DNA from: Phycisphaerales bacterium
GTDB taxonomy: Bacteria; Planctomycetota; Phycisphaerae; Sedimentisphaerales; Anaerobacaceae
NCBI GenBank assembly: GCA_020346325.1
Contig: CP070782.1
Coordinates: 6,167,382-6,201,605, forward strand
Direction of reading: 5' to 3'
DNA length: 34,224 bases
Positions 4,235 through 33,049 of the stretch are shown here, piece by piece. The position numbers and the translations under genes were made by a program. Every line of letters begins with the position of its first letter. The stretch's first letter is position 1. The notes beneath the pieces were generated by a model, which was given only the letters and a program-made list of their open reading frames with translations, did not search any database and was not told the origin of the DNA.

Positions 4235-7200
4235 CTACTGCAACCGTTTCACCGCCAAGACGATGCGCTCCTTTGCCGCGTCGGACAGGGCTTCGTCGCC
4301 CAGTTCCAGCGCGCGGCGGTAGGCCGCCAGGGCGCTTGGCTTGTCACCCTGCGCCTCCTTGATCAGGCCCAAATGCTCGTACGCCTCAGGCGACGCCGAT
4401 CCCTGCAACTCATGCTGCTGAATCGCCGCCGTGACGGCGCGAGCCGCCTCGCCATGCCGACCGCCTTTGTACAGGACGTAGGCATAGGTATCCAGGTAGG
4501 TTGCATTGTCCGGGTCGACAGCCAATACCTGTTGGGCGTATCGCTCGGCCAGCGCGATCTTCCGGTCGTCCTGGGCCAGCATGTACGCCAGGTTGTTCAA
4601 AACACTGGTATTCGTCGGCATTCTGGCTACCAGACTTTCGTAAACGGTGATGGCCCTCTCCAGATACTGTTTATCGGAAGTCTTCTTGTAGGCCACCGTC
4701 AGCAGGTGGGCCTTCTCGAAGAGGTATTGCAGTTCCCGATCGGGGTCGTGGCCGCTCAGCGCGATACACTTGTCGATATAACCGACAGCATCATCATAGT
4801 CATCCTGGAGCCGGGCCAGGCAGAACAGGGCGAAGTTCCCAGCCGGCACGTCCGGATCGGCCTGGAGTCGCTGGCGGCAGTACTGGGAAACCACCTCGAC
4901 GCCGACCAACTGATAAACACGCAGGAGGATGCCGGCCGTCATCTGCCTGTCGCCCCACGCCCGATCCAGGGCCTGACGGCAGTAGCGTTCGGCCGCAGCG
5001 GCGTCACCGAGCTTGATCTGGGCCTCCGCCATCCGACAGAGGACGGGAGGGGCATAGCTCGTGTCGAGATACTTGGCTCCTTCCTGGAGAACCTCTCTCA
5101 GTTTTTCCGGACGCCAGCCGGCCGCGCTGCCCGGTCGGTCTCCGGCAGCCAGGAGCAGCGCATGCAGACGACCATCCAGCGCGGCAAGGTATGGCGCGTC
5201 GTGCTCCAAACGATCGGACATCTGCGCTTGCCGCAGTTGGCGAGCCTCTTCGTAGAGCCGTGCCGCTTCGTCATACGCCCCCCGCTGTTGCGCGAAGGCA
5301 GCGGCGCGGCTGCGCCAACCCACGTCATCCGGGAACTCGGCCAGAGCATCCACATAGAGCTGTTCGAGGGCGTCGTCCTGCCCGAGCCTCCGGTAGATGC
5401 GCTCGAGCAGCGTTCGCGCCTGCGCCGGGGCGTCAGGCTCATTGAGCAGGCCACGGAGTTCGCTGATCGCCTCCTGATCGCGCCCGGCCCAGACATAAGC
5501 ATTGGCCAGCGCCACGGTGGTAGCCGAATCGTCCTGGAGTACCCGACTCTTGCGGAAATCCAGGATCGCCCGGTCGCCTTGCCCCATCAGCAAACCGATC
5601 TCGCCGCGTAGCCGCCACGTGGCCGCGTCCTCCTGATTCTTCTCGAGGCTGCGATTGGCCAGTTCCAGCGCCCGCTGCAACTGCCCCTGCCGCTTGGCCA
5701 GCAAGGCTTCCATGAGTAGAAGCCTGGGCTCATCGGGGAACTTCTCTTTGAAGCTCTGGAGCCGGCGCTCGGCCTCCTGGACCAGACCCACATCGAGATA
5801 GGCGCGGATCTGGGCCAGGCGGTTGATAGCGTTGTCCTGGAGAGACAGCAGCTCCTCTGAATATTGCCGGACGCCCGCTCTATCGTCGGTCGCCTCGGCC
5901 ACCAGCACGAGGCCCTTGAGCGCATCGCTGCGACTGCCGGCTTCGCTGTAAAGCTGTTCGAGGAAGCGCTTGGCCTCGGCATAGCGACCCACACGGTAGT
6001 AGTGACGCCAGAGCAGCCGACCGTCTTTCGATTCGACCAGCAACGCCTGGGCCTTGTCACTCTGACCGGTGACACGATAGTACTCCGCGTAGCTTTCCAG
6101 CATGAACTCGTTGCTCGGATCGATCGCTTTGGCCTGTTCGAAGGCACTCTCGGCCATCGTGAGATAGGCCTGCTTGCGGGCCGGGTCGGTCTCCTTGACC
6201 GCAACGCGCGTCGCCAGACGTCCCAGCATGACGGCATTGTTGAAACTCGGCGCGTTGATCTGGATCGTCTGCCGGATCGCCAGGGCCGTGAGGGGCTCGC
6301 TCTGGCCGACGACCTCAGCGTAGGCGCTCAACACCTGCACGTCTTTAGGATTCACCTGGATCGCGTGCTCCAGAGCGGCTTTCAGTTCCCGCCGCTGTTC
6401 GGCGGAGGCATTGTCGCCGAGGCGACCGTTACGCACGAGCAAAGCGTTGGCCAGGGCCTTGGCCACCAGCGGATCGGTGGGATTCAGATGGGAGGCCATG
6501 CGCGTGTCCTCGACAGAACCATGTTCGTTGCCGAGAGCCGCCTGCACGTTGCCACGGAGCATGTAGCCGTAAGAGAAGACGGGCCGCAGCTTGAGGCATT
6601 CATCCAGATGCTTCAAAGCTTCCTCGTGTTGCCCCCGCCCCAGCGCCAGCCGGCCGGCGAAGAGATGTCCCTGGCAATCGTCCAAGCTGTCCGAGGTCAC
6701 CACCTCGACCATCTCCGCAGCCAGCGACCAGTCCTGACGATGCCGGGCGATGTCGAAGAGTTGTCCGGCCGCCACCAGGCGCGGATTCGCGTCACCGGCA
6801 TCGAGATAGGCCGGCGCCTCCGGACGGCGCTGGGTGGCGGTCGCCGCCAGCACCTGACGCCACTGTTCGGTCGCTTCATCCAGCTGCCTCTGGTCCTGGT
6901 AGAAGAAGCCCAATTCCATGGCCCGCTCCACCGGGTCCGCCAGGCTCTTGACCGCCTGCACGTGGATCTCCCGACGCCGGGCTTCGGAACAGGCCGTCGG
7001 ATCGGGCTCGGCCAGGAGGCCGCGGTAGAACAGCGCCGCCAGGCTCTGCGGAGAATGCCTCAGATACGCGTCGACCACCGTCCGGGCTCGTTCGATATCC
7101 TGTTGCGCGATCAGGGCTTCGCAGAGACGGCGCAGATGATCCTTGTCCACTGCCTGCGGGTCACTCTGCAACAACTGCTCGACGAGCGCCGCCTGACGCC

Positions 7201-9178
7201 GGCGGCAATCGTGCAGCTCGGCAACCATGGCTCTGACCGCCGGCTGTTCTTCCGCTGACGATTCGGCATGAGCCGTGGCGCGCTGACGTCGAATCGCGCC
7301 CTGCAACTGTTCCGCTTGTGTCACGATCAGGGCCAGCCTAAGCCTCATGGTATCGGGGTCGGCAGCGCTTAGGGGCGCGATCTCCTCCTCGGCCTCGCTC
7401 ACGTGTCCTTTGGCCAGCAGGATCTCGATGCGCAGGGTCGCGCTGCGCTGGTTCGCTCCGAAACGCTCCTCAAAACTGCTCACAGCGCTGAGGGCCACGT
7501 CGTAGGAACCGGCCTCCGACAATGCCTGGCCGTAATCCAACAGTGCGGTCGGCTTCGTGTTGATGATCCCCGATGCCAAAGCCGCACCGAGGAATTCGAC
7601 CACGGCGCCGATTTCCGAGGTGGGTTTGAAGAGGCGGGCCAGCGTGTAGGCGAGAAAGGCGTCCCTGTCTTCCGGGGCGTTCGAAGCCTTGATGTCTTCA
7701 TAGGCCGCATACAGCCGCCGAACCGCCTGCCCTCGATCGCCCCGGGCCAGATCGAGCATCCCCTGCCATTTCACCACCTGAGGATTGTCGCCACTGCCCT
7801 GGATCTGCTCAATCTCATGGACAGCCTTCTGGGCCTTGGCCGATAGCATCTCGTCGGCCGTCAGCGGCTGGCCCGAGACCAGCGTCTGCTCCAGGTAGAG
7901 CGTCGCGAGCAGTGCACACAACGAAAACCGATTTGTCTGCTTGGCGTGGTACCTGGGTCCGGGATCGTCCTGGGCTTCGGGCAATTCCAGAGCCGACTCG
8001 GCCAGATCGATCGCCTGACGCAGGCTCGCCCGATCCCCGTAGAGAGAGAACCTGCGATAGCGCAAGCCGGCGGCCATCCGGGCGTACTTGACACTCGTCG
8101 GATCGAGCGTGTGCGCCTTCTCGATGGCCTCGATGGCGCGATCGAGCTGCACCGCCCCGGCGTCGGTGTGCAGATAGACGGAGTAAAATGCAAAGAACTC
8201 AGCAGCGGCGGCGAACGCCTGCGGGCGAGATGCGAAGCGGGTCATCAGCGTTTCGTATTCGGGCTCGAGAACACGCATGATCTCGCGGGCCTCCGCCACG
8301 CCCCGGCGCTGTGCCTTGGAGAGCCTGCGTATGAGGAGATTGATGTGCGGCTCCGGCTCATCGCCGGCCACCCTGACCGCCTCGGTCAGAATCTCTTCCG
8401 CCTGTCGCGCCGTCTCATCGGCCCGGTCATGGTTGCCACTGGCCTCGGCCGCCCGGCTCTCCGCCAGCAAGGCCGCCGCCAGGTGATGATATGCCTGGCC
8501 GTGGCTCGGATCGAGCCGCCGGGCCTCTTCCAGATCACGCTTGGCCTCGCCCAGCAGTTGCTCCGGATTGTTCGTCGCCCCCATGTTCGCCAGTTCGAGC
8601 GCCGCCCGCCCCCGGGCGAAGTACAGATACGCACCCAGAAGCTCGTCGCCGCCATCCCACCCGGCCGGTTCAGCCGTGCCGAAACTCGGCTCCCACGTGG
8701 CCTTCTTCTCCTGCATCACGTCGGAGCCATCGGTTGTCTCCAGCAGGTCCGTCGCCTGCGATGAAACATCCTTCCAGTACGCGCTGACCTGCTGGCCCAC
8801 GGTGCTGAGGCTGTCGGCCATGATGTAGTAGTATTTGAGCTTTCCCAGACGGGCCTTGAGATTCTGCGGGTCGGAGGTGATGATCTGCTCCCAGCATCCC
8901 AACACGCGGCGCCAGTCGTCGGTCACCTGGAACACGTCCGCCAGTCTGAAGTAGAGTTCCAGCTTCTCTTCGGCATTTCGCGTCAGGCCCAGCGCCTGCT
9001 GGTAGTTCCGGCGCGCCGCTTCATAGTCCTGTACGGCCCACGCGGCATCCCCATCGGCAACGAACTGGGCCGGGTCGCGCGTCAGACGAAGAATGACCAG
9101 CACGGCTCCCAGGGCCAGGATCGCCAAAACGGCCGAGCCCAGCAGCGCCACTTTCTTGTTGAGACGTCTTCTCGCCAT
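4235..9178 (-). CDS. Giant TPR-repeat protein of the exosortase/exopolysaccharide operon
   Basis: This 1647-residue protein has one N-terminal membrane segment (about residues 10-31) after a basic start, then tetratricopeptide-like helical repeats to the end (for example AYHHLAAALL, YGYMLRGNVQAALG, YEHLGLIKEAQG). It resembles PrsT-like TPR proteins found with exosortases, which are thought to scaffold polysaccharide assembly, but it is longer than the usual roughly 900 residues. The start chosen is the ATG whose A is shared with the TGA of the preceding EpsI-like gene (TGATG), a sign of translational coupling. A TTG one codon earlier is possible. Most of the chain should lie in the periplasm. 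Partners are unknown; the operon suggests the kinase or export lipoprotein. Confidence 0.85.
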   Translation of the reverse strand: MARRRLNKKVALLGSAVLAILALGAVLVILRLTRDPAQFVADGDAAWAVQDYEAARRNYQQALGLTRNAEEKLELYFRLADVFQVTDDWRRVLGCWEQIITSDPQNLKARLGKLKYYYIMADSLSTVGQQVSAYWKDVSSQATDLLETTDGSDVMQEKKATWEPSFGTAEPAGWDGGDELLGAYLYFARGRAALELANMGATNNPEQLLGEAKRDLEEARRLDPSHGQAYHHLAAALLAESRAAEASGNHDRADETARQAEEILTEAVRVAGDEPEPHINLLIRRLSKAQRRGVAEAREIMRVLEPEYETLMTRFASRPQAFAAAAEFFAFYSVYLHTDAGAVQLDRAIEAIEKAHTLDPTSVKYARMAAGLRYRRFSLYGDRASLRQAIDLAESALELPEAQDDPGPRYHAKQTNRFSLCALLATLYLEQTLVSGQPLTADEMLSAKAQKAVHEIEQIQGSGDNPQVVKWQGMLDLARGDRGQAVRRLYAAYEDIKASNAPEDRDAFLAYTLARLFKPTSEIGAVVEFLGAALASGIINTKPTALLDYGQALSEAGSYDVALSAVSSFEERFGANQRSATLRIEILLAKGHVSEAEEEIAPLSAADPDTMRLRLALIVTQAEQLQGAIRRQRATAHAESSAEEQPAVRAMVAELHDCRRRQAALVEQLLQSDPQAVDKDHLRRLCEALIAQQDIERARTVVDAYLRHSPQSLAALFYRGLLAEPDPTACSEARRREIHVQAVKSLADPVERAMELGFFYQDQRQLDEATEQWRQVLAATATQRRPEAPAYLDAGDANPRLVAAGQLFDIARHRQDWSLAAEMVEVVTSDSLDDCQGHLFAGRLALGRGQHEEALKHLDECLKLRPVFSYGYMLRGNVQAALGNEHGSVEDTRMASHLNPTDPLVAKALANALLVRNGRLGDNASAEQRRELKAALEHAIQVNPKDVQVLSAYAEVVGQSEPLTALAIRQTIQINAPSFNNAVMLGRLATRVAVKETDPARKQAYLTMAESAFEQAKAIDPSNEFMLESYAEYYRVTGQSDKAQALLVESKDGRLLWRHYYRVGRYAEAKRFLEQLYSEAGSRSDALKGLVLVAEATDDRAGVRQYSEELLSLQDNAINRLAQIRAYLDVGLVQEAERRLQSFKEKFPDEPRLLLMEALLAKRQGQLQRALELANRSLEKNQEDAATWRLRGEIGLLMGQGDRAILDFRKSRVLQDDSATTVALANAYVWAGRDQEAISELRGLLNEPDAPAQARTLLERIYRRLGQDDALEQLYVDALAEFPDDVGWRSRAAAFAQQRGAYDEAARLYEEARQLRQAQMSDRLEHDAPYLAALDGRLHALLLAAGDRPGSAAGWRPEKLREVLQEGAKYLDTSYAPPVLCRMAEAQIKLGDAAAAERYCRQALDRAWGDRQMTAGILLRVYQLVGVEVVSQYCRQRLQADPDVPAGNFALFCLARLQDDYDDAVGYIDKCIALSGHDPDRELQYLFEKAHLLTVAYKKTSDKQYLERAITVYESLVARMPTNTSVLNNLAYMLAQDDRKIALAERYAQQVLAVDPDNATYLDTYAYVLYKGGRHGEAARAVTAAIQQHELQGSASPEAYEHLGLIKEAQGDKPSALAAYRRALELGDEALSDAAKERIVLAVKRLQ

Positions 9179-10008
9179 CAATTACCCCTTGTCTGAGTTC
9201 TTGCGCGGCTCGTATCGTTCGTCGAATCGAACCGTTCCTGTTCTTGATGCGGGCTCTGGAGTCCCTGCTTGTCGGGCCAGTGATGACTCTCCAACTGCGG
9301 GAGGACGACGGTCAGCAGTTTCTCGGCAGCCACCACGGCCTCAGCCTGCGTCGGCGCCGAAGACGACTGATTGAAGACCAGCTCGACTTTGCAGAAATAC
9401 GAATAGGGACTGAAAATGTTTCGATTCAGCGCCATGCGAGCCCCGTTCCGGCTACCAGCATACTGCCCGTTGACGCGAAAGAAGTACAGCACGGGAAAAC
9501 GCGCCGCCCACAGCAGGTTCGTATCCGACGTGCCGAAAACCAGGCAGCGTCCCGAAATCTCCCGCGGTGGATCTGAGTCGATGATGCGCAATCGCACCGT
9601 GTCCGTTGCCAGCCGCTGGTAGCCGCCACCGGTGTAGCACTCTTCCGGCACGTGCGGGACACGATCGGGCAAGGCGTAATAGGTGACGAACAACATCACA
9701 CGCCGGACAGGACTCTCGGTCGGCTGGCAAGGATCTTCCAGCACCCATTGAATGTAGTCGGTGGTACCCAGCGACGTGAGAATCTCCTCGTTCTCGATCT
9801 TCAGCTTCGCCGCCACCTCGTAAGGAGCCAGCGCCGCTTCATCCATCAGGTCCAGGGATCGTTTCAAGGGCAACGGTCGCTTCTTCAGAGCCAGTCCCAG
9901 TTTCTTCTGGGCGATGGACATCCCCCCACCGACGATATCCATCACCGCCACGCAGATCACAAAGGCCGGCTGGAAATAACCCGAGTTGTCCTCCGTCGCG
10001 GCTCTCAT
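9178..10008 (-). CDS. EpsI-like exosortase-associated protein (DUF3485)
   Basis: This 276-residue protein has a hydrophobic N-terminal segment (about residues 12-30) and a soluble domain facing outward. The segment VPHVPEECYTGGGYQ and the following beta-rich region match the EpsI/DUF3485 family, which is either fused to or placed next to exosortases in exopolysaccharide loci. The biochemical role of the family is not established. Its start overlaps the exosortase stop by four bases (ATGA) and its stop shares a base with the TPR start, so the three genes are very likely translated as a coupled set. The last 40 residues are polar and rich in Gln, Ser and Arg and appear nonconserved. Confidence 0.85.
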   Translation of the reverse strand: MRAATEDNSGYFQPAFVICVAVMDIVGGGMSIAQKKLGLALKKRPLPLKRSLDLMDEAALAPYEVAAKLKIENEEILTSLGTTDYIQWVLEDPCQPTESPVRRVMLFVTYYALPDRVPHVPEECYTGGGYQRLATDTVRLRIIDSDPPREISGRCLVFGTSDTNLLWAARFPVLYFFRVNGQYAGSRNGARMALNRNIFSPYSYFCKVELVFNQSSSAPTQAEAVVAAEKLLTVVLPQLESHHWPDKQGLQSPHQEQERFDSTNDTSRARTQTRGN

Positions 10009-25883: not shown

Positions 25884-25908
25884 CGTAGGGTGCGCCCCGC
25901 CCCACCGA
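25884..25908. repeat. Diverged REP-like unit beside the RAYT gene
   Basis: CCGTAGGGTGCGCCCCGCCC then CACCG keeps the frame of the GTAGGGTGTGC..GCACACCG unit seen at 16557 and 27606 but has lost part of the stem pairing. It lies about 50 bases from the end of the transposase gene. Confidence 0.5.
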
Positions 25909-25960
25909 TCCATCTGTACCGCGACCGGGTGGCAGCGTCAAGTGATAGCTTGGCGATGGT

Positions 25961-26527
25961 TCAGAAGACCGGGAAGCTATCTCGATCTATCGCTATCGGG
26001 CCCGCCCCTGTTCCTTCCCACGCGCCGGCACTGCTGTATCGCCACTGCGTCGCCGTCTGGACGAGTCCCCGTCGCACTGGATTGTTGTGGATGTATCGCA
26101 CCGTCTCAATCAGGGTCTTGACCTTCGTAATGTTCCTGTCATAGCCGCCCCCTTTCTGCCAGAACTGACGCGCTCGCCTCTGCTGGCCCGTCGCCAATCG
26201 CTGCAGATCGTCCGGGCGATGCTCCGTGAGAAAGGCCATGGCTTTGCGCGCGACGGGCTGCTTGATGGACTGCAGGATACGTGCGATGGAATACTCGTCG
26301 CGCGTGGGATAGAGCACGAGATGCACGTGCTCCGGCATGAAGACATAGGCCCACAAATCGAACGCGTGAGCCGATCGGGCCGCATCAATCGCACCAACAA
26401 GGTACCGGCAGAAACGACCCTCCAGCAACAGCCCGCGCTGCCGATAGCAGCTAAACGTCAACGCATGGGCATGCCCGGCCGTATTCCAACGCCGGCAACG
26501 CTTGCTATATCGATCACCCTCTCGCAT
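25961..26527 (-). CDS. REP-associated tyrosine transposase (RAYT)
   Basis: This 188-residue protein belongs to the Y1/HUH transposase family domesticated in REP systems. The metal-binding HUH is His67-Val-His69 in MPEHVHLVLYP, and the likely nucleophile is Tyr129 in KGGGYDRN. The late segment YIHNNPVRRGLV then WRYSSAGAW is a hallmark of RAYTs. These proteins bind and cut single-stranded REP hairpins and are single-copy chromosomal genes rather than insertion sequences. REP-like units lie next to it (25884) and at 27606 and 16557. No terminal repeats of an insertion sequence are seen. The ATG has no strong ribosome site. Confidence 0.9.
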   Translation of the reverse strand: MREGDRYSKRCRRWNTAGHAHALTFSCYRQRGLLLEGRFCRYLVGAIDAARSAHAFDLWAYVFMPEHVHLVLYPTRDEYSIARILQSIKQPVARKAMAFLTEHRPDDLQRLATGQQRRARQFWQKGGGYDRNITKVKTLIETVRYIHNNPVRRGLVQTATQWRYSSAGAWEGTGAGPIAIDRDSFPVF

Positions 26528-26623
26528 GCGTTCGGACCCATCGCCAAGCTAACGCTTGACGCTGTCACCCGTCGCCTGGCTTGATTCCTGTAACGGCTCC
26601 TGCACGTCTCCTGCATCGTATCT

Positions 26624-27571
26624 TCAGCGCAGCTTTTCTAACAGCCGATTCAGCTCGGCTAGAAGTATCTTATCCACGTAGACCGTCTTTGGCTCCGTGT
26701 CGTCGAGCAGCAGGTATCCTCCTTCAGTGGGCTCAGGCTGCTTCTTTGATCGAGCCAACGGAATCTTCTTCCACATGGTGTAGGAAGGATGGGGCACTAC
26801 ATCCTCCTCGAACAACGGGCCGGCGATTGCCTTGCGGAGTTGCTCACTCTCCAACACCTCGACCTTCCACCCGAATTGCCGAGCGAACTGAACGAAGGTT
26901 CGCGGCGGCTTATCATCGGTAAGGATCCGCAAGGCGTCCGTCTGCGTGCCGGCTATCGTATACAAAACGTTGGCAAGCTGTCTAGATCTGGATCTAGAGA
27001 GACGATCGTGCACCTTCACCAGACGCAGGAGCGTATCATCCCTCGTCTCGTCCGGAGTTCCGCCCTCCGAACAAAATACCTTGAAGAGCCATTTCACAAG
27101 ATCCAGTAGCAACTCCATCGGCGACTCGTATTCAACCGTAAGGAACTCCCGCTCCTGTAAACTCTTCTTGTACTCGTACAACTTGGCTAATTGACTAGCG
27201 TCTGATACGGTCACCCCCCCATTGTAGAAATACGCGCGCCAGCAGATACCTCGCTGGATGGCCCGTTCGATCTCCTGCACAGTACCCGAACTGCCCTTAC
27301 CAGTTGCCGAGCCAAGGCGGCTGCGGAATGCAGCCACCAATGCATCCGCACTGCCAACCAGTTGCTCGTTTATCGGAGGTTGTACCCCAGGCCCGTTTTG
27401 TATCACCGGATCGGACTTCCAATGAATGAAGGCGAGAGTCACGCCCTTTCCAGCCGTTTCCAGGAGTTTCGAGCAAACGTCAACTGCCTGATGACAAGTC
27501 AGTCCCTCCGATTCAACATCACCAGGACCACAAAACATCACCTTGAAGATGCTCACGTTCTTATGGTCCAT
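26624..27571 (-). CDS. DUF4062-like protein, candidate defence or signalling sensor
   Basis: This 315-residue protein starts with KVMFCGPGDVESEG and continues with FIHWKSDPVIQ, INEQLVGSADALVAAFRSRLG and SGTVQEIERAI. This order matches the DUF4062 pattern (a TIR-like or nucleotide-hydrolase-like fold) seen at the front of many NLR-like and anti-phage proteins. The C-terminal half (from about residue 175) is unlike any domain I know. There is no ATPase module or signal peptide. The gene is clearly less GC-rich than its neighbours: three 60-base lines I counted by hand (26941, 27061 and 27121) each have 29 G or C. This suggests recent transfer. It is flanked by a RAYT and a REP unit. Function is inferred only. 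Confidence 0.7.
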   Translation of the reverse strand: MDHKNVSIFKVMFCGPGDVESEGLTCHQAVDVCSKLLETAGKGVTLAFIHWKSDPVIQNGPGVQPPINEQLVGSADALVAAFRSRLGSATGKGSSGTVQEIERAIQRGICWRAYFYNGGVTVSDASQLAKLYEYKKSLQEREFLTVEYESPMELLLDLVKWLFKVFCSEGGTPDETRDDTLLRLVKVHDRLSRSRSRQLANVLYTIAGTQTDALRILTDDKPPRTFVQFARQFGWKVEVLESEQLRKAIAGPLFEEDVVPHPSYTMWKKIPLARSKKQPEPTEGGYLLLDDTEPKTVYVDKILLAELNRLLEKLR

Positions 27572-27605
27572 TTCCTGACCCTCGGGCTTGGTCTATAGTC
27601 AGTTT

Positions 27606-27629
27606 CGTAGGGTGTGCCGTGCACACCGC
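27606..27629. repeat. Single REP-like unit
   Basis: CGTAG is followed by GGTGTGC-CGT-GCACACC, a perfect seven-base-pair stem with a three-base loop. It matches the left unit of the pair at 16557 except in the loop. It lies between the 51-residue membrane protein gene and the DUF4062 gene. Confidence 0.75.
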
Positions 27630-27638
27630 CTTTCTTCT

Positions 27639-27794
27639 CTACCACTGCCGCACGAAGTCGCGGAGGAGTTTGAGTATTTCTTCCTGGTTTTTGACGATGT
27701 CGTTGATGCGCATGGCCCAGCGGAAGGTGGCGACCAGGAGCAAAACAACCACCAGGATGAGGAGCGCATAGGTCAGCAGCACACCCGTCATCAT
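27639..27794 (-). CDS. 51-residue single-pass membrane protein with disrupted start
   Basis: Minus-strand ATG ATG ACG opens a 51-residue protein: a hydrophobic helix (about residues 4-24), a basic junction (RWAMR) and an amphipathic coiled-coil tail ending RDFVRQW. The strong ribosome site (AAGGAGAGG) is not before this ATG but before another ATG at 27815-27813 in the same frame, which reads MILA then TAA (27803-27801), then Ala-Ser-Met-Met. Translation may restart at 27794 after the five-codon mini-frame, or a single change (CAA to TAA) has damaged the original start. Either way the product or its remnant is real, since hydrophobicity and tail are intact. Function unknown. Confidence 0.65.
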   Translation of the reverse strand: MMTGVLLTYALLILVVVLLLVATFRWAMRINDIVKNQEEILKLLRDFVRQW

Positions 27795-27815
27795 GCTCGC
27801 TTAGGCCAGGATCAT

Positions 27816-28203
27816 GGTTCCTCTCCTTTCGGCTGCCCTCTGGGCGGCTTTCGGGGTCTGCCACGTCTCAATCGTTACGCGTCCGCAGGGCTATTCTAGT
27901 ACGCGGGCGGCGGGAATGTAAGGGAAATCCCGGGGGAAGACCGCATTTCGTATCCCGCCACGAGCAAGAGGCCGGGGGCAAGGGGCCTCTTCCCGGGCAC
28001 AGCGTCACCCAGCTAGTGACACGCCGGAAAAACGAGCCAGACACCCAGGTATTTTCTGTTGATGCGGCCCTGCGCCCCTGCCGAAGTGTTATGACGTGTG
28101 AACGCTTGAACGGAAACAAGAACAGGAAAACAAGCGTCCGCTTCGGGGCGAAACCAGGACATCGGTATCACTTCCGGGCCGCCGGGGGTGGAAGGGAAGG
28201 CAG
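27816..28203. other. Gene-free stretch
   Basis: No coding region is supported. There are two hairpins: AGAGGCC/GGCCTCT near 27965-27990 and GTCAC/GTGAC at about 28005-28022. Neither is followed by a T run. Confidence 0.4.
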
Positions 28204-28344
28204 AGCACGGAGGCCCTGATCGCCGCCTTGGGCGGGCCGGATCAGATCGTCCCCGAGGGGAAGTACGACAAGTATGTCTACGAGAATCGCGATCCGCGGT
28301 TCTACTGCGTCAGAGACAACAACATTGAGCGGATAGCAAGGTAG
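28204..28344 (+). pseudogene. Coding remnant, C-terminal fragment of a lost gene
   Basis: One frame gives 46 residues in protein-like composition, including ALIAALGGPDQIVPEGKYDK and then a FYCVRDNNIERIAR end before TAG. The pattern, a helix ending in LGGPDQI and a beta hairpin, is like the end of small BamE- or lipoprotein-type domains, but the family is not certain. Upstream in this frame there is no ATG, GTG or TTG with a ribosome site before an in-frame TGA. It therefore looks like the tail of a gene whose front was lost. An unusual start or a sequencing error cannot be excluded. Confidence 0.45.
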
Positions 28345-28636
28345 CCGGACGACCTCAGAGCCCCTTCCGCCGGTCGTGGTTCCCCCATGCCGACACGACC
28401 CGGCGGTTGAGGGCCAAGGGGCAGGCCTGTGCGCCGGAGAATGCGCAGGCGGAATTCTTCGGCGCACTGTCTGCCCCCCGGGAATCGCAGAGTTGTGCAA
28501 GCCGTGCCCCGCACAGCCTGCGATCTCCCGCGGGGGACGCCCATCCCTCGGCAGGCCCCCCAGAATTGGGGTGGGCAACCGAGATCCTGGGCCTACGGAG
28601 GCACCACCGAAACGCGGGTGATTTTCCGGAATTCAC

Positions 28637-28665
28637 TTGACGGCGAAACATGCCTTCTGTATTAT
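28637..28665 (+). promoter_or_regulatory. Near-consensus sigma-70 promoter without a downstream gene
   Basis: TTGACG (28637-28642), a 17-base spacer and TATTAT (28660-28665) is the best promoter match seen in the window. Nothing convincing is encoded for the next 430 bases on this strand, so the transcript may be noncoding. Confidence 0.55.
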
Positions 28666-28833
28666 GTACACAAAACAGGACTGGGAAGTGTAGACAGCAA
28701 GGAAAGGGGTGGATCATCTCGGCCCGGACTCTGCATGACGTTGGGAACAACACGAAGCAACGCGGCCCCTGCCGTGCCCGCCTGGGGTCGGCCCGCTGGC
28801 CCGGACCCGGCGGGCCTGCCCGACCCGGCCGCG

Positions 28834-28957
28834 CCAAACAAAGCCAATTTCCGTGTTTTTGGCCCAAGAATGGGGGTGGAGGCGGGAAAACAAAGCCAAA
28901 CAAAGCCAATTCTCTCCGGCTGTCCCCCACCGGCGTGTGCCCAACAAACCCAATTCT
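28834..28957 (+). repeat. Three short direct repeats (CCAAACAAAGCCAATT type)
   Basis: CCAAACAAAGCCAATT occurs exactly at 28834-28849 and 28896-28911, and in a changed form (CCCAACAAACCCAATTCT) at 28940-28957. Spacings are 62 and 44 bases. They are AT-rich blocks in a GC-rich setting. Confidence 0.65.
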
Positions 28958-29095
28958 ACCAGACCCGGGAATGGAGATGGCCCCCTGCCGTGAAGCCAGT
29001 TACGGGAAACCCGAGGCCACCAGCCCGGCGACTGCCAAGCGAGTGAACAGCGCCGCGCGAGCGCCTGTTTGCAGGTCCCGGAGGACTTTCCGGAG

Positions 29096-29138
29096 AAATG
29101 AAAACGGTGGGATGAGCAAATGTGCTGCCCATCCCACC
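29096..29138 (-). terminator. Intrinsic terminator of the porin gene
   Basis: GGTGGGATG (29106-29114) pairs perfectly with CATCCCACC (29130-29138), with a small inner AGCA/TGCT stem. Read on the minus strand the stem is followed by GTTTTCATTTC. It lies 27 bases after the porin stop. Confidence 0.75.
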
Positions 29139-29165
29139 GCGAAACGCTGCTCAGGTGCTAAGGTG

Positions 29166-30096: not shown

Positions 30097-31821
30097 CTAG
30101 CGGGTCACGTCAATGCGGCCATCGCGGCTAAACGCCAGAACCCCCTGCAAATGCTTGGTCGAGGCAAAATCGAACGCGCGCGCCCCGCTGAGGACCACGC
30201 AACTGTCGTCGGCCGTCAGGGTCAGATCCTGCTCGGGGTCCTTATGACGCAGGATGTTAGCCAGGACGAACGCCTTTTCCAGGCCGTCGCCGCGACTGTA
30301 GTTGACGACTTCGTCGGGCTGGGCGAGGCGATCGCCGTCGTAAATCGAGGCATCCTCCAGGCCCTGAAGCCACCGGTATGCCTCGTCGACCGACCGAGAC
30401 GCGGCAGCTTCGAGCGAGACAGGGTTGCGTTCCACGGCCGCCTTGGCGAACGGACGCCAGTCGCACGTTTCCATGTCACGGAAGGCGTAAAAGGCCAGAT
30501 CCACCGTGGGGTTCGCCTGCCGTTGGGACTGAAGCTGCGCGATGATCTCCTCGCGGTTCTGTCCCCCGGACAATTGGATCGGGGCCCTCTCGACGAAGTG
30601 CTTCTCGTGGGCCGGCAGTTTGGGTTGGATGTGCAGGAAATCCGCCAACTGGTCCACCAATTGCTTCGGGGCGGGAACATTCCCATCGAGAAACCCACTG
30701 AGCGCCGCACGGCCCTCAGCGGTGCGCAGGTCGGGCTTCTGCTGGGTGAGGAATTCGTGCAGGCGGTCGCAGCGCACACGGCCCGGCAGTTCGTAGCGGA
30801 TGTAGTCTTCGTCGTGCACCTCGGCCAGCAGCTTGTCGTGCGTCGTGTCACCGATCTTGTAAGGACTGCCATGTTCGTAGCTGAACAACGTTTCGGCTTT
30901 GAGAAACTGCGGATGGCCGTGACAATCTCTACAGATCTGAAAATATTTCTGATAGCCCGTCTCGCAGCGCAGGAAGCTGGCGAAATGGGTCAGGTTGATC
31001 TCGGTCGAAAGATAGTCGCCGAGGCGAGTCCTGAAGTGGTCGTAACGTTTCGGGGCGATCGTGGCTTCATCGTACAGGCAGTGAATGTAGCCGCTCGGGT
31101 GGGCGACGATCGTGACCTGCTCGTTGCGGAGAGCACGCTGAGCCTTGTAGGAAATTTCGGTGCCGTTGAACCACATTGTCTTGGTCACGAGCCGGCGGTT
31201 GTTCGTGAGAATACCATCGTTCATATCGATGAAATTCTGCGAATGCAGCGGTGTCAAGATGAGGTAGATATCCTCCAGCGGAATGCCGCACACGATGAAC
31301 GCCGCGGCAGCATACAGCGTCGCCAGCGAGACGCATTCGCCCGCCGCCTTGCCATAGCCCGGCTTGAAGCGGAAAGCGTCCATCGCCTCGACCGTTTCCG
31401 TCTTCCAATAGGGAATGATATCGCCATCGTACTTGTCGAGTCCGAAGTGCTTACGGATATTGACGTCGAAGTAGTACTTATCTCCCTCGTAGCCGAACAG
31501 GGCGTTACTCTTGCTGATCTCCTCCGGGGGCATCACATGCCTGAACCGCTCCAGTTCCGCCTGCTGCGTCGTCAATCCCCAGGTCTCCAGATCGAGATTG
31601 AAGTCGAACTCATCCATCACATACTGACGAAGCCGCATCAGCTTGCGGTAACTCGTCTTGCCTTCCAGTTTCTTAAAACAATCTTCCTCGCGCCATTTCC
31701 AGATGATAGGACTCATGATGTTTGCCAGAACCAGGCTGTACATCAGTTCCGGAAAGACAAACACCTCCATGTCGGAGAGAGTGATTGCCGACGAGTATTT
31801 CTCCAGATCCTTCGGATTCAT
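30097..31821 (-). CDS. Transglutaminase-like protein of unknown function
   Basis: This 574-residue protein has a transglutaminase-type core. Cys163 lies in GECVSLATLYAAAAF, at the start of a helix, and His193 in TPLHSQNF, followed by Asp199 or Asp202, fitting a Cys-His-Asp triad. A CxxCH (Cys297, Cys300, His301) lies downstream; as no signal peptide is present, a zinc or structural site is more likely than heme. The last 250 residues are helical without a recognised domain. The ATG at 31821 is preferred over a TTG six codons earlier; GGGAG lies 11 bases upstream. It stands next to a broken cheD gene with a perfect hairpin between. It could be a peptidase-like or inactive relative; the role is not known. 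Confidence 0.6.
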   Translation of the reverse strand: MNPKDLEKYSSAITLSDMEVFVFPELMYSLVLANIMSPIIWKWREEDCFKKLEGKTSYRKLMRLRQYVMDEFDFNLDLETWGLTTQQAELERFRHVMPPEEISKSNALFGYEGDKYYFDVNIRKHFGLDKYDGDIIPYWKTETVEAMDAFRFKPGYGKAAGECVSLATLYAAAAFIVCGIPLEDIYLILTPLHSQNFIDMNDGILTNNRRLVTKTMWFNGTEISYKAQRALRNEQVTIVAHPSGYIHCLYDEATIAPKRYDHFRTRLGDYLSTEINLTHFASFLRCETGYQKYFQICRDCHGHPQFLKAETLFSYEHGSPYKIGDTTHDKLLAEVHDEDYIRYELPGRVRCDRLHEFLTQQKPDLRTAEGRAALSGFLDGNVPAPKQLVDQLADFLHIQPKLPAHEKHFVERAPIQLSGGQNREEIIAQLQSQRQANPTVDLAFYAFRDMETCDWRPFAKAAVERNPVSLEAAASRSVDEAYRWLQGLEDASIYDGDRLAQPDEVVNYSRGDGLEKAFVLANILRHKDPEQDLTLTADDSCVVLSGARAFDFASTKHLQGVLAFSRDGRIDVTR

Positions 31822-31901
31822 CGTTTCGCGTTCTCCCAAGTAAGAGGCCTATCGAGCGGTTCGCACGTTCGGCCGGTTGTACCGCCGCGACCACTCCCGC
31901 C

Positions 31902-32218: not shown

Positions 32219-33049
32219 CTATAGCCCGGCCGCCCGGACGTCGGCGACAAAGCGTCCCTTGTTCTCAATCACATCCACCTGGCAGTCGAAGAGCAGGCTG
32301 AGTCGCACTGAAGTGAGCATCTCACCGGGCGTCCCCTGAGCCACCAACCGTCCTGCTTTCATGAGCACCACCCGGTGAACCGCCCGCGGCAGTTCGTCCA
32401 GATGATGAGAGACAATCACCATCGTCGGCGGATCGGTCCGCCGCATCAACTCGTCCAGCACCTCGATACAGGCCGCCCGCGCGCCCATGTCGAGCCCGAC
32501 CGTCGGCTCATCGAATAGAAGCACGTTCGCATCGGCCACCAGAGCCCGTGCCAGCAGCGTCTTCATCTGCTCTCCCGAAGAAAGATCCCCATAGGCACGC
32601 TCGGCGATAGACGCCAATCCCAGCGGCGCCAGTTCGGCCGCGACGCGCTGCCACTGACGAGCCTCAACCTCCCGGTGCAGCGGCAGCATGATCGTTCCGA
32701 ACAGCCCCGTTGCCACCACCTCCCGCACGCACATCTTGGGGTCGAATCGCGGCGCCCGCGACGGCTCAATCAACCCAATCGTCCGCCGGACCTCGCCCAG
32801 GCTGACTCGGCCGTAACGACGCCCGTTGACCGTCACCGTTCCGGTAGACGGCCACAGATAACCGCTCAACACCGCCATCAGGGCCGACTTACCTGATCCA
32901 TTGGGCCCGAGAATCGCGCAACAACTCCCGGCTGGAACGCCCAGATTCACGTCGGCCAGGATCGCATTACCCCGCCGCGTGAAACTGACGTCGCTTAGTT
33001 CGATCGCGTTCGTCCGCAAGGATGATCTGGGAGACGCCGGCGGCCTCAT
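32219..33049 (-). CDS. ABC transporter ATP-binding protein
   Basis: This 276-residue ATPase has Walker A GPNGSGKS (48-55), the signature LSSGEQMK, Walker B VLLFDEP and the switch His in VSHHLDEL. The sequence order and the GYLWPSTGTV segment resemble the ModF/YlmA-like or iron-complex ATPase branch. No permease or binding-protein gene is nearby, so it is an orphan subunit or a soluble ATPase. It overlaps the upstream reductase-like gene by four bases (ATGA), so the two are translated together, an odd pairing. Function beyond ATP use is unknown. Confidence 0.85.
   Translation of the reverse strand: MRPPASPRSSLRTNAIELSDVSFTRRGNAILADVNLGVPAGSCCAILGPNGSGKSALMAVLSGYLWPSTGTVTVNGRRYGRVSLGEVRRTIGLIEPSRAPRFDPKMCVREVVATGLFGTIMLPLHREVEARQWQRVAAELAPLGLASIAERAYGDLSSGEQMKTLLARALVADANVLLFDEPTVGLDMGARAACIEVLDELMRRTDPPTMVIVSHHLDELPRAVHRVVLMKAGRLVAQGTPGEMLTSVRLSLLFDCQVDVIENKGRFVADVRAAGL

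What the first reader, a model, noticed from the sequence alone, without database searches (positions are those of the whole stretch)
26624..27571. AT-richer DUF4062-like gene beside a RAYT: candidate defence island
The N-terminal half has the order of motifs of DUF4062 proteins (PGDVE, HW, INEQL, RLG, SGTVQEIE), which often front anti-phage or NLR-like proteins. Hand counts of three lines give 48% G+C, well under the GC-rich neighbours. The C-terminal half looks new. The gene stands alone without ATPase or nuclease.
Basis: partly seen in the sequence, partly recalled or inferred. Interest (0 to 1): 0.55.

Follow-up and report, generated by a model that had tools for sequence, protein, structure and literature searches.

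The report
Lone TIR-like NADase-type gene, unusual tail
A bacterium carries a single, probably acquired gene whose front half resembles enzymes that destroy the cell's NAD+ to stop viruses spreading, joined to a tail unlike the relatives examined; it stands alone among ordinary metabolic genes, not in a defence island.

Summary
The gene is real (26624-27571, minus strand, 315 aa). Residues ~5-160 belong to the DUF4062 family. A profile of 67 relatives scores 94.6 bits, and the AlphaFold model is TIR/DNPH1-like with pLDDT above 90 over most of that part. The invariant Glu (E100) falls on the catalytic E97 of KpSwz (Swarozyc), although that alignment is itself weak. Corrections: G+C is 54%, not 48%, though still the lowest of 25 window genes. 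There is no defence island; neighbours are metabolic. The RAYT is a separate mobile element whose ends stop short of the gene and which recurs elsewhere in the genome without it. The gene is absent from 5 of 5 congeners. The C-terminal half (~166-315) has no credible relative or solved fold among what was searched, and is not the winged-helix tail common in close relatives. Best reading: a lone TIR-like NADase with an unfamiliar C-terminal regulatory or trigger-sensing domain. Activity and defence are inferred, not shown. A variant of a recently described kind; modest interest.

The parts
26624..27571 (-). DUF4062-type gene, 315 aa plus stop, intact
   Evidence: ORF list; single copy in the 6.5-Mb genome at E<=0.001
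27077..27571 (-). N-terminal TIR-like / DUF4062 domain (residues 1 to about 165)
   Evidence: PDC-S60 E=6e-11; 67-sequence profile, 94.6 bits; AlphaFold pLDDT mostly above 90; VIA-align Z 12.8 to DNPH1, 12.1 and 11.6 to TIR-STING, 11.8 to the RRS1 TIR domain
27272..27274 (-). codon of E100, the presumed catalytic glutamate in SGTVQEIE
   Evidence: E in 74 of 74 other aligned sequences; aligned with the position of KpSwz E97 (alignment E=0.55)
26627..27076 (-). C-terminal domain (residues about 166-315), function unknown; inferred sensor/regulator
   Evidence: no credible relative; low-confidence models; no fold match with E<=0.001
25927..26578 (-). neighbour, NOT part of the system: RAYT mobile element with about 40-bp inverted ends
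   Evidence: 41-nt 88% inverted arms; 652-bp match to a second copy elsewhere in the genome, ending at the arms
25961..26527 (-). neighbour: RAYT (REP-associated tyrosine transposase) ORF
   Evidence: NCBIfam NF047646, 97.7 bits; Pfam Y1_Tnp 24.7 bits
27607..27627 (+). neighbour: GTAG-headed REP-like hairpin upstream of the gene start

Best explanation
The gene encodes a stand-alone two-domain protein. SHOWN by comparison: residues ~5-160 are a DUF4062 domain with a TIR-like predicted fold and the invariant glutamate E100. [quoted passage not shown] INFERRED: the C-terminal ~150 residues keep it off or sense a trigger, possibly a phage component as in Swarozyc, where the C-terminal auxiliary domain binds the phage portal. 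When triggered, the cell loses NAD+ and stops growing, so phage cannot spread (abortive infection). INFERRED: the gene was acquired horizontally by this lineage and works alone; its RAYT neighbour is a separate mobile element.
For: Family. Fold: (DNPH1 glycosidase, TIR-STING, plant TIR, SPARTA TIR-APAZ). Active site: E100 in 74 of 74 other sequences; the A3 profile's best PDB match is KpSwz, and the alignment puts A84 of that chain (E97A construct, by my numbering) on the profile position of E100 (weak, E=0.55). Mechanism of the family: PMC13174449, abstract, main text and figure legends read. Acquisition: lowest G+C and GC3 of 25 window genes; absent from 5 of 5 congeners, present as N-terminal matches in only 2 of 88 other family genomes, 13 of 396 other class genomes at E<=0.001 and 11 of 391 other phylum genomes. 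Modularity: among relatives the same domain is joined to a winged-helix-like tail (my reading of the sequences; 67 of 82 loci are 265-300 aa), to NTPase-type (NACHT-like, recalled) long chains, and to other tails, as expected for an effector with exchangeable regulators.
Against: No activity or phage test. No defence gene nearby. The query departs from the consensus at 11 of 38 positions that are at least 90% conserved in relatives (A14C, S15G, R23G, W33C, N34S, E52K, P57I, E99Q, S116Y, F134Y, G142E), several of them in helix A, so it could be inactive or assemble differently. The preprint found that three of four human DUF4062 proteins tested showed no NADase activity, so the fold alone does not prove catalysis. 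The C-terminal domain has no identified homologue, so a sensing role is by analogy only.
Confidence: 0.5

Rival explanations
1. It is a nucleoside/nucleotide N-glycosidase or 2-deoxyribosyltransferase-type enzyme (DNPH1/MilB-like) acting on a nucleotide other than NAD+, in nucleotide clean-up or in defence.
For: The best structural matches are DNPH1 chains (Z 12.8, rmsd 2.9, 125 residues) and MilB, tied or nearly tied with TIR-STING and TIR; 3 of 8 A1 members match Pfam Nuc_deoxyrib_tr (best E 2.8e-5).
Against: At sequence level the nearest relatives are DUF4062 (7 of 8 A1 members), for which NADase activity was shown in KpSwz and TEP1; modular tails fit effectors better than housekeeping glycosidases; patchy distribution.
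Confidence: 0.2
2. It is a decayed or catalytically dead relic of an acquired DUF4062 protein.
For: 11 of 38 otherwise strongly conserved positions are changed; no close relative in 5 congeners; it stands alone.
Against: Intact 315-aa ORF; 27 of 38 conserved positions kept, including all six invariant ones reported for A3 (D18, W51, Q64, G87, G96, E100).
Confidence: 0.2
3. It is a passenger carried by the RAYT element (a RAYT plus DUF4062 cassette).
For: 96 bp apart, same strand; GTAG-headed hairpins at 25885 and 27607 bracket the pair.
Against: The RAYT unit ends at 25927 and 26578; a 76%-identical copy with the same ends lies elsewhere in the genome without the DUF4062 gene; no RAYT match at E<=1e-3 in any of 82 loci of relatives; the hairpins are dispersed.
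Confidence: 0.05

Closest known systems
Swarozyc (KpSwz; DUF4062 protein of Klebsiella pneumoniae, PMC13174449; PDB 10wc, 11cq, 11cv)
   Same: N-terminal DUF4062 TIR-like domain with the catalytic Glu at the aligned position; single protein; auxiliary domain at the C-terminus
   Different: Very low sequence similarity (profile E=0.55); the C-terminal domain was not matched to the HTH/winged auxiliary domain; not in a defence island; no activity known
About 280-aa DUF4062 plus winged-helix-like-tail proteins (e.g. L039 Bacillus, L046 Candidatus Jettenia, L114 viral contig)
   Same: About 30-36% identity over residues ~5-155; the six invariant N-terminal residues shared
   Different: The query lacks their C-terminal conserved block (the match stops at residue 177; best C-terminal E 0.8)
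PADLOC candidate PDC-S60
   Same: N-terminal 154 positions of the model match residues 7-153 (E=6e-11)
   Different: The model is 906 positions long; the rest is absent from the query
DNPH1 / nucleoside 2-deoxyribosyltransferases
   Same: Same fold class (Z 12.8)
   Different: 13-16% identity; different sequence family; the aligned range ends near residue 168, so the C-terminal domain has no counterpart in the alignment

Membership tests
DUF4062 (TIR-like NADase superfamily) | sequence homology over the domain | tested here: met
   94.6 bits to a 67-relative profile; 7 of 8 members of A1, which includes the query, match PF13271. The query alone does not reach Pfam's model, so membership is through relatives.
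DUF4062 (TIR-like NADase superfamily) | TIR-like beta-alpha fold | tested here: met
   AlphaFold model, pLDDT mostly above 90 over residues 11-160; TIR and DNPH1 matches Z 10-13; Foldseek E-values alone were weak, TIR domain at rank 9, E=1.6e-3
DUF4062 (TIR-like NADase superfamily) | conserved catalytic Glu | tested here: met
   E100 invariant (74 of 74 others); aligned with KpSwz position 97 (weak alignment)
DUF4062 (TIR-like NADase superfamily) | NAD(P)+ hydrolysis | not testable with these tools
   needs biochemistry
Swarozyc | C-terminal HTH/winged auxiliary domain | tested here: inconclusive
   No sequence match to relatives' tails; C-terminal models low confidence (mean pLDDT 65.5), no fold match
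Swarozyc | phage portal sensing and abortive infection | not testable with these tools
   needs phage assays
Swarozyc | location in a defence island (true of the five tested proteins; not universal) | tested here: not met
   31 neighbours in the window and the adjacent 14 kb: no credible defence system
WYL/WCX-domain protein | full WCX domain in the C-terminal half | tested here: not met
   Only residues about 223-250 match: Pfam WCX E=0.017, below cut-off; PADLOC WYL E=2e-4 over 186-250; a WCX profile built from 10 proteins of related genomes aligns 21 residues
RAYT-borne cassette | gene lies within the mobile unit's ends | tested here: not met
   RAYT unit 25927-26578 defined by inverted arms and a second copy

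The most novel reading that the evidence does not exclude
The C-terminal ~150 residues are a previously undescribed sensor domain that gates a TIR-like NADase and recognises a trigger other than the phage portal, so this single gene would be a new type of NAD+-depleting phage defence, carried alone on the chromosome of a Planctomycete.
Probability: 0.2. Interest if true: 0.5.

Novelty: new variant of a known kind. Interest (0 to 1): 0.27.

Why it matters
DUF4062 was described as a TIR-like NADase in a 2026 preprint, also in the human vault protein TEP1. Which C-terminal domains switch such enzymes on, and in response to what, is open. A compact 315-aa member with an unfamiliar tail is an easy test object for how the same executioner is coupled to different sensors. 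Beyond that it is one more patchy, probably acquired member of the family.

Tried and rejected
Defence island: rejected. PADLOC on 31 neighbouring proteins gave 7 families at E<=0.001. mad3, mad8, two AriA models and ATPase-Toprim all come from the ABC-transporter ATPase 32222-33049; PDC-M71B is a weak hit in the 1648-aa protein 4238-9181; SspC (E=2e-4) was not traced to a protein.

Neighbour survey of relatives: from 43 of the 80 genome loci (those with at least 19.3 kb held; ORFs over 900 aa left out) I scanned the 129 nearest and, as control, 127 far proteins with PADLOC at 1e-20 (2 of the 129 far picks dropped because they were also near ones). Families hit: 77 near, 75 far (25 of each shown); restriction-modification, CBASS-type cyclase and others occur in the near set, restriction methyltransferases in the far set; no enrichment near versus far within 10 kb. 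ORFs were called by a simple longest-first rule, so this is rough.

WCX/WYL tail: only about 21-28 residues resemble the end of WCX; 1 of 2000 shuffles (1292 reported by hmmsearch) scored as high, yet the rest of the domain is missing. Treated as a short local resemblance.

C-terminal homologues: the phylum search gave 103 of 391 other genomes at E<=1, best 8e-4 with an internal stop; plasmids best E=8; viral contigs 0 of 5 candidates; 82 relatives best E 0.8; 23 further DUF4062 proteins best E 0.53. Re-alignments have E-values for tiny databases and were not taken as homology. The first genome-contig scan with the full protein found no relative (0 of 18 stretches).

Empty site: the 580-aa gene 30097-31839 is conserved in 6 of 6 genus genomes, but the block to its left (22-30 kb) is not beside it in the 5 congeners, so an exact insertion point could not be shown.

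Fold search: DNPH1 rows are tied with or above TIR rows, so the fold alone does not decide between NADase and nucleotide glycosidase. KpSwz did not appear among the rows shown of either fold search; nothing is concluded from that.

RAYT papers were seen in a search listing only.

Full report
What is there. The window lies at 6,167,382-6,201,605 of a 6.5-Mb single-contig genome. Its G+C is 54.2% (not 48%), the lowest of 25 window genes, as is its GC3 (63.5%; other 24: mean 77.5%, SD 3.4). This fits acquisition but does not prove it.

N-terminal half. PADLOC's PDC-S60 matches residues 7-153 (E=6e-11). Pfam's DUF4062 model does not hit the query, but hits 7 of 8 members of an alignment that contains it. 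The search for related loci returned 80 genome loci (the best of 149) and 2 viral contigs, all matching the N-terminal half at 29-36% identity. A profile of the 67 relatives of 265-300 aa (of 82) matches the query over residues 6-177 at 94.6 bits. In a 75-sequence alignment D18, W51, Q64, G87, G96 and E100 are invariant; the query keeps 27 of 38 positions that are at least 90% conserved and departs at 11.

Fold and active site. The AlphaFold model is confident over residues ~11-160 and poor beyond ~171. VIA-align of Foldseek's candidates gives DNPH1 (Z 12.8, rmsd 2.9, 125 residues), TIR-STING (Z 12.1 and 11.6), the RRS1 TIR domain (11.8), MilB (11.2) and SPARTA TIR-APAZ (10.7); GTPases and other Rossmann-like folds follow at 9.5-11. 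Foldseek itself gave weak, mixed matches. A profile search of the PDB has KpSwz DUF4062 as its top row at E=0.93 (alignment A1, sole row) and E=0.55 (A3, 4 rows); the alignment places alanine 84 of that chain on the profile position of E100. The structure paper's construct is residue 15 to the C-terminus with E97A, so this alanine is probably position 97 (my numbering).

What the family does. I read the abstract, main text and figure legends of PMC13174449 (supplement not read). DUF4062 is described there as a TIR-like NADase family; KpSwz protects E. coli by abortive infection, needs E97 and its auxiliary domain, and is switched on by a phage portal; ~20% of bacterial members lie in predicted defence islands and over half neighbour a defence gene. 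Only one of four human members tested was active. A search for DUF4062 gave 9 papers, this one being the only one on its function judged by the listing.

C-terminal half. Residues ~166-315 have no credible relative in 392 phylum genomes, 397 class genomes, 89 family genomes, plasmids, viral contigs, 82 relatives or 23 further DUF4062 proteins. A weak likeness to the end of the WCX domain covers about 21-28 residues. The stand-alone model has mean pLDDT 65.5 and no Foldseek match at E<=0.001; best VIA-align Z 4.0. With models this poor, neither a winged helix nor a new fold can be claimed.

Distribution and setting. At E<=0.001, N-terminal matches occur in 11 of 391 other phylum genomes, 13 of 396 other class genomes, 2 of 88 other family genomes and 0 of 5 congeners. 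The plasmid collection has 158 records at E<=0.01, none covering 80% of the query; no phage record at E<=0.1. The neighbours are metabolic (Prismane, cytochrome c552, tryptophan, exosortase, ABC transporter and others) and no defence system was found among 31 of them. The 580-aa gene to the right is conserved in all 6 genus genomes, but the block that holds our gene is not beside it in the other five.

RAYT. The neighbour is a true RAYT with 41-nt inverted arms at 25926-25966 and 26531-26571. A second copy, 77% identical in protein, lies at 1.634 Mb; DNA similarity runs from window 25927 to 26578 and stops at the arms. The DUF4062 gene lies outside. None of the 82 relatives' loci has a RAYT match. 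The adjacency is therefore probably incidental.

Verdict. The gene is most likely a lone DUF4062 TIR-like enzyme, probably an NADase effector with its own C-terminal regulator. Catalysis, trigger and defence are inferred. I do not file it as Swarozyc, because its auxiliary domain was not matched and no function is known. It is a variant of a recently described kind, of modest interest.

Noticed in passing
window 25926-26578: RAYT element with about 40-bp inverted ends; a second copy at G000:C1:1633933-1634493 (77% protein identity), a 50-residue fragment match at 834935, and relatives in three of five congeners.
   Followed up: partly
window 16559, 25885, 27607: GTAGGGTGYGCC occurs only 3 times in the 6.5-Mb genome, all on the + strand within about 11 kb in this window (reversed-pattern control: 4 in the genome); two of the three sit on clean 7-bp hairpins, GTAG-headed like REPs. 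The broader hairpin pattern has 15 genome matches against 12 in the control.
   Followed up: partly
window 30097-31839: 580-aa protein with no Pfam match (E<=1) or NCBIfam match, conserved at 73-78% identity in all five congeners.
   Followed up: no
window 28833-28955: Four copies of a 17-nt unit (GCCAAACAAAGCCAATT and variants) in a 1.6-kb stretch (27572-29165) without a clear gene.
   Followed up: no
L010, L011: Same-phylum DUF4062 proteins with open frames of about 1000 aa, with a P-loop NTPase (NACHT-like, by motif from recall) after the DUF4062 domain.
   Followed up: no
L119: An open frame in which pentapeptide-like repeats (by eye) precede a DUF4062 domain, an unusual order.
   Followed up: no
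L113, L114: Two IMG/VR viral contigs carry DUF4062 plus winged-helix-like-tail proteins of 279 aa, suggesting carriage by prophages or phages.
   Followed up: no
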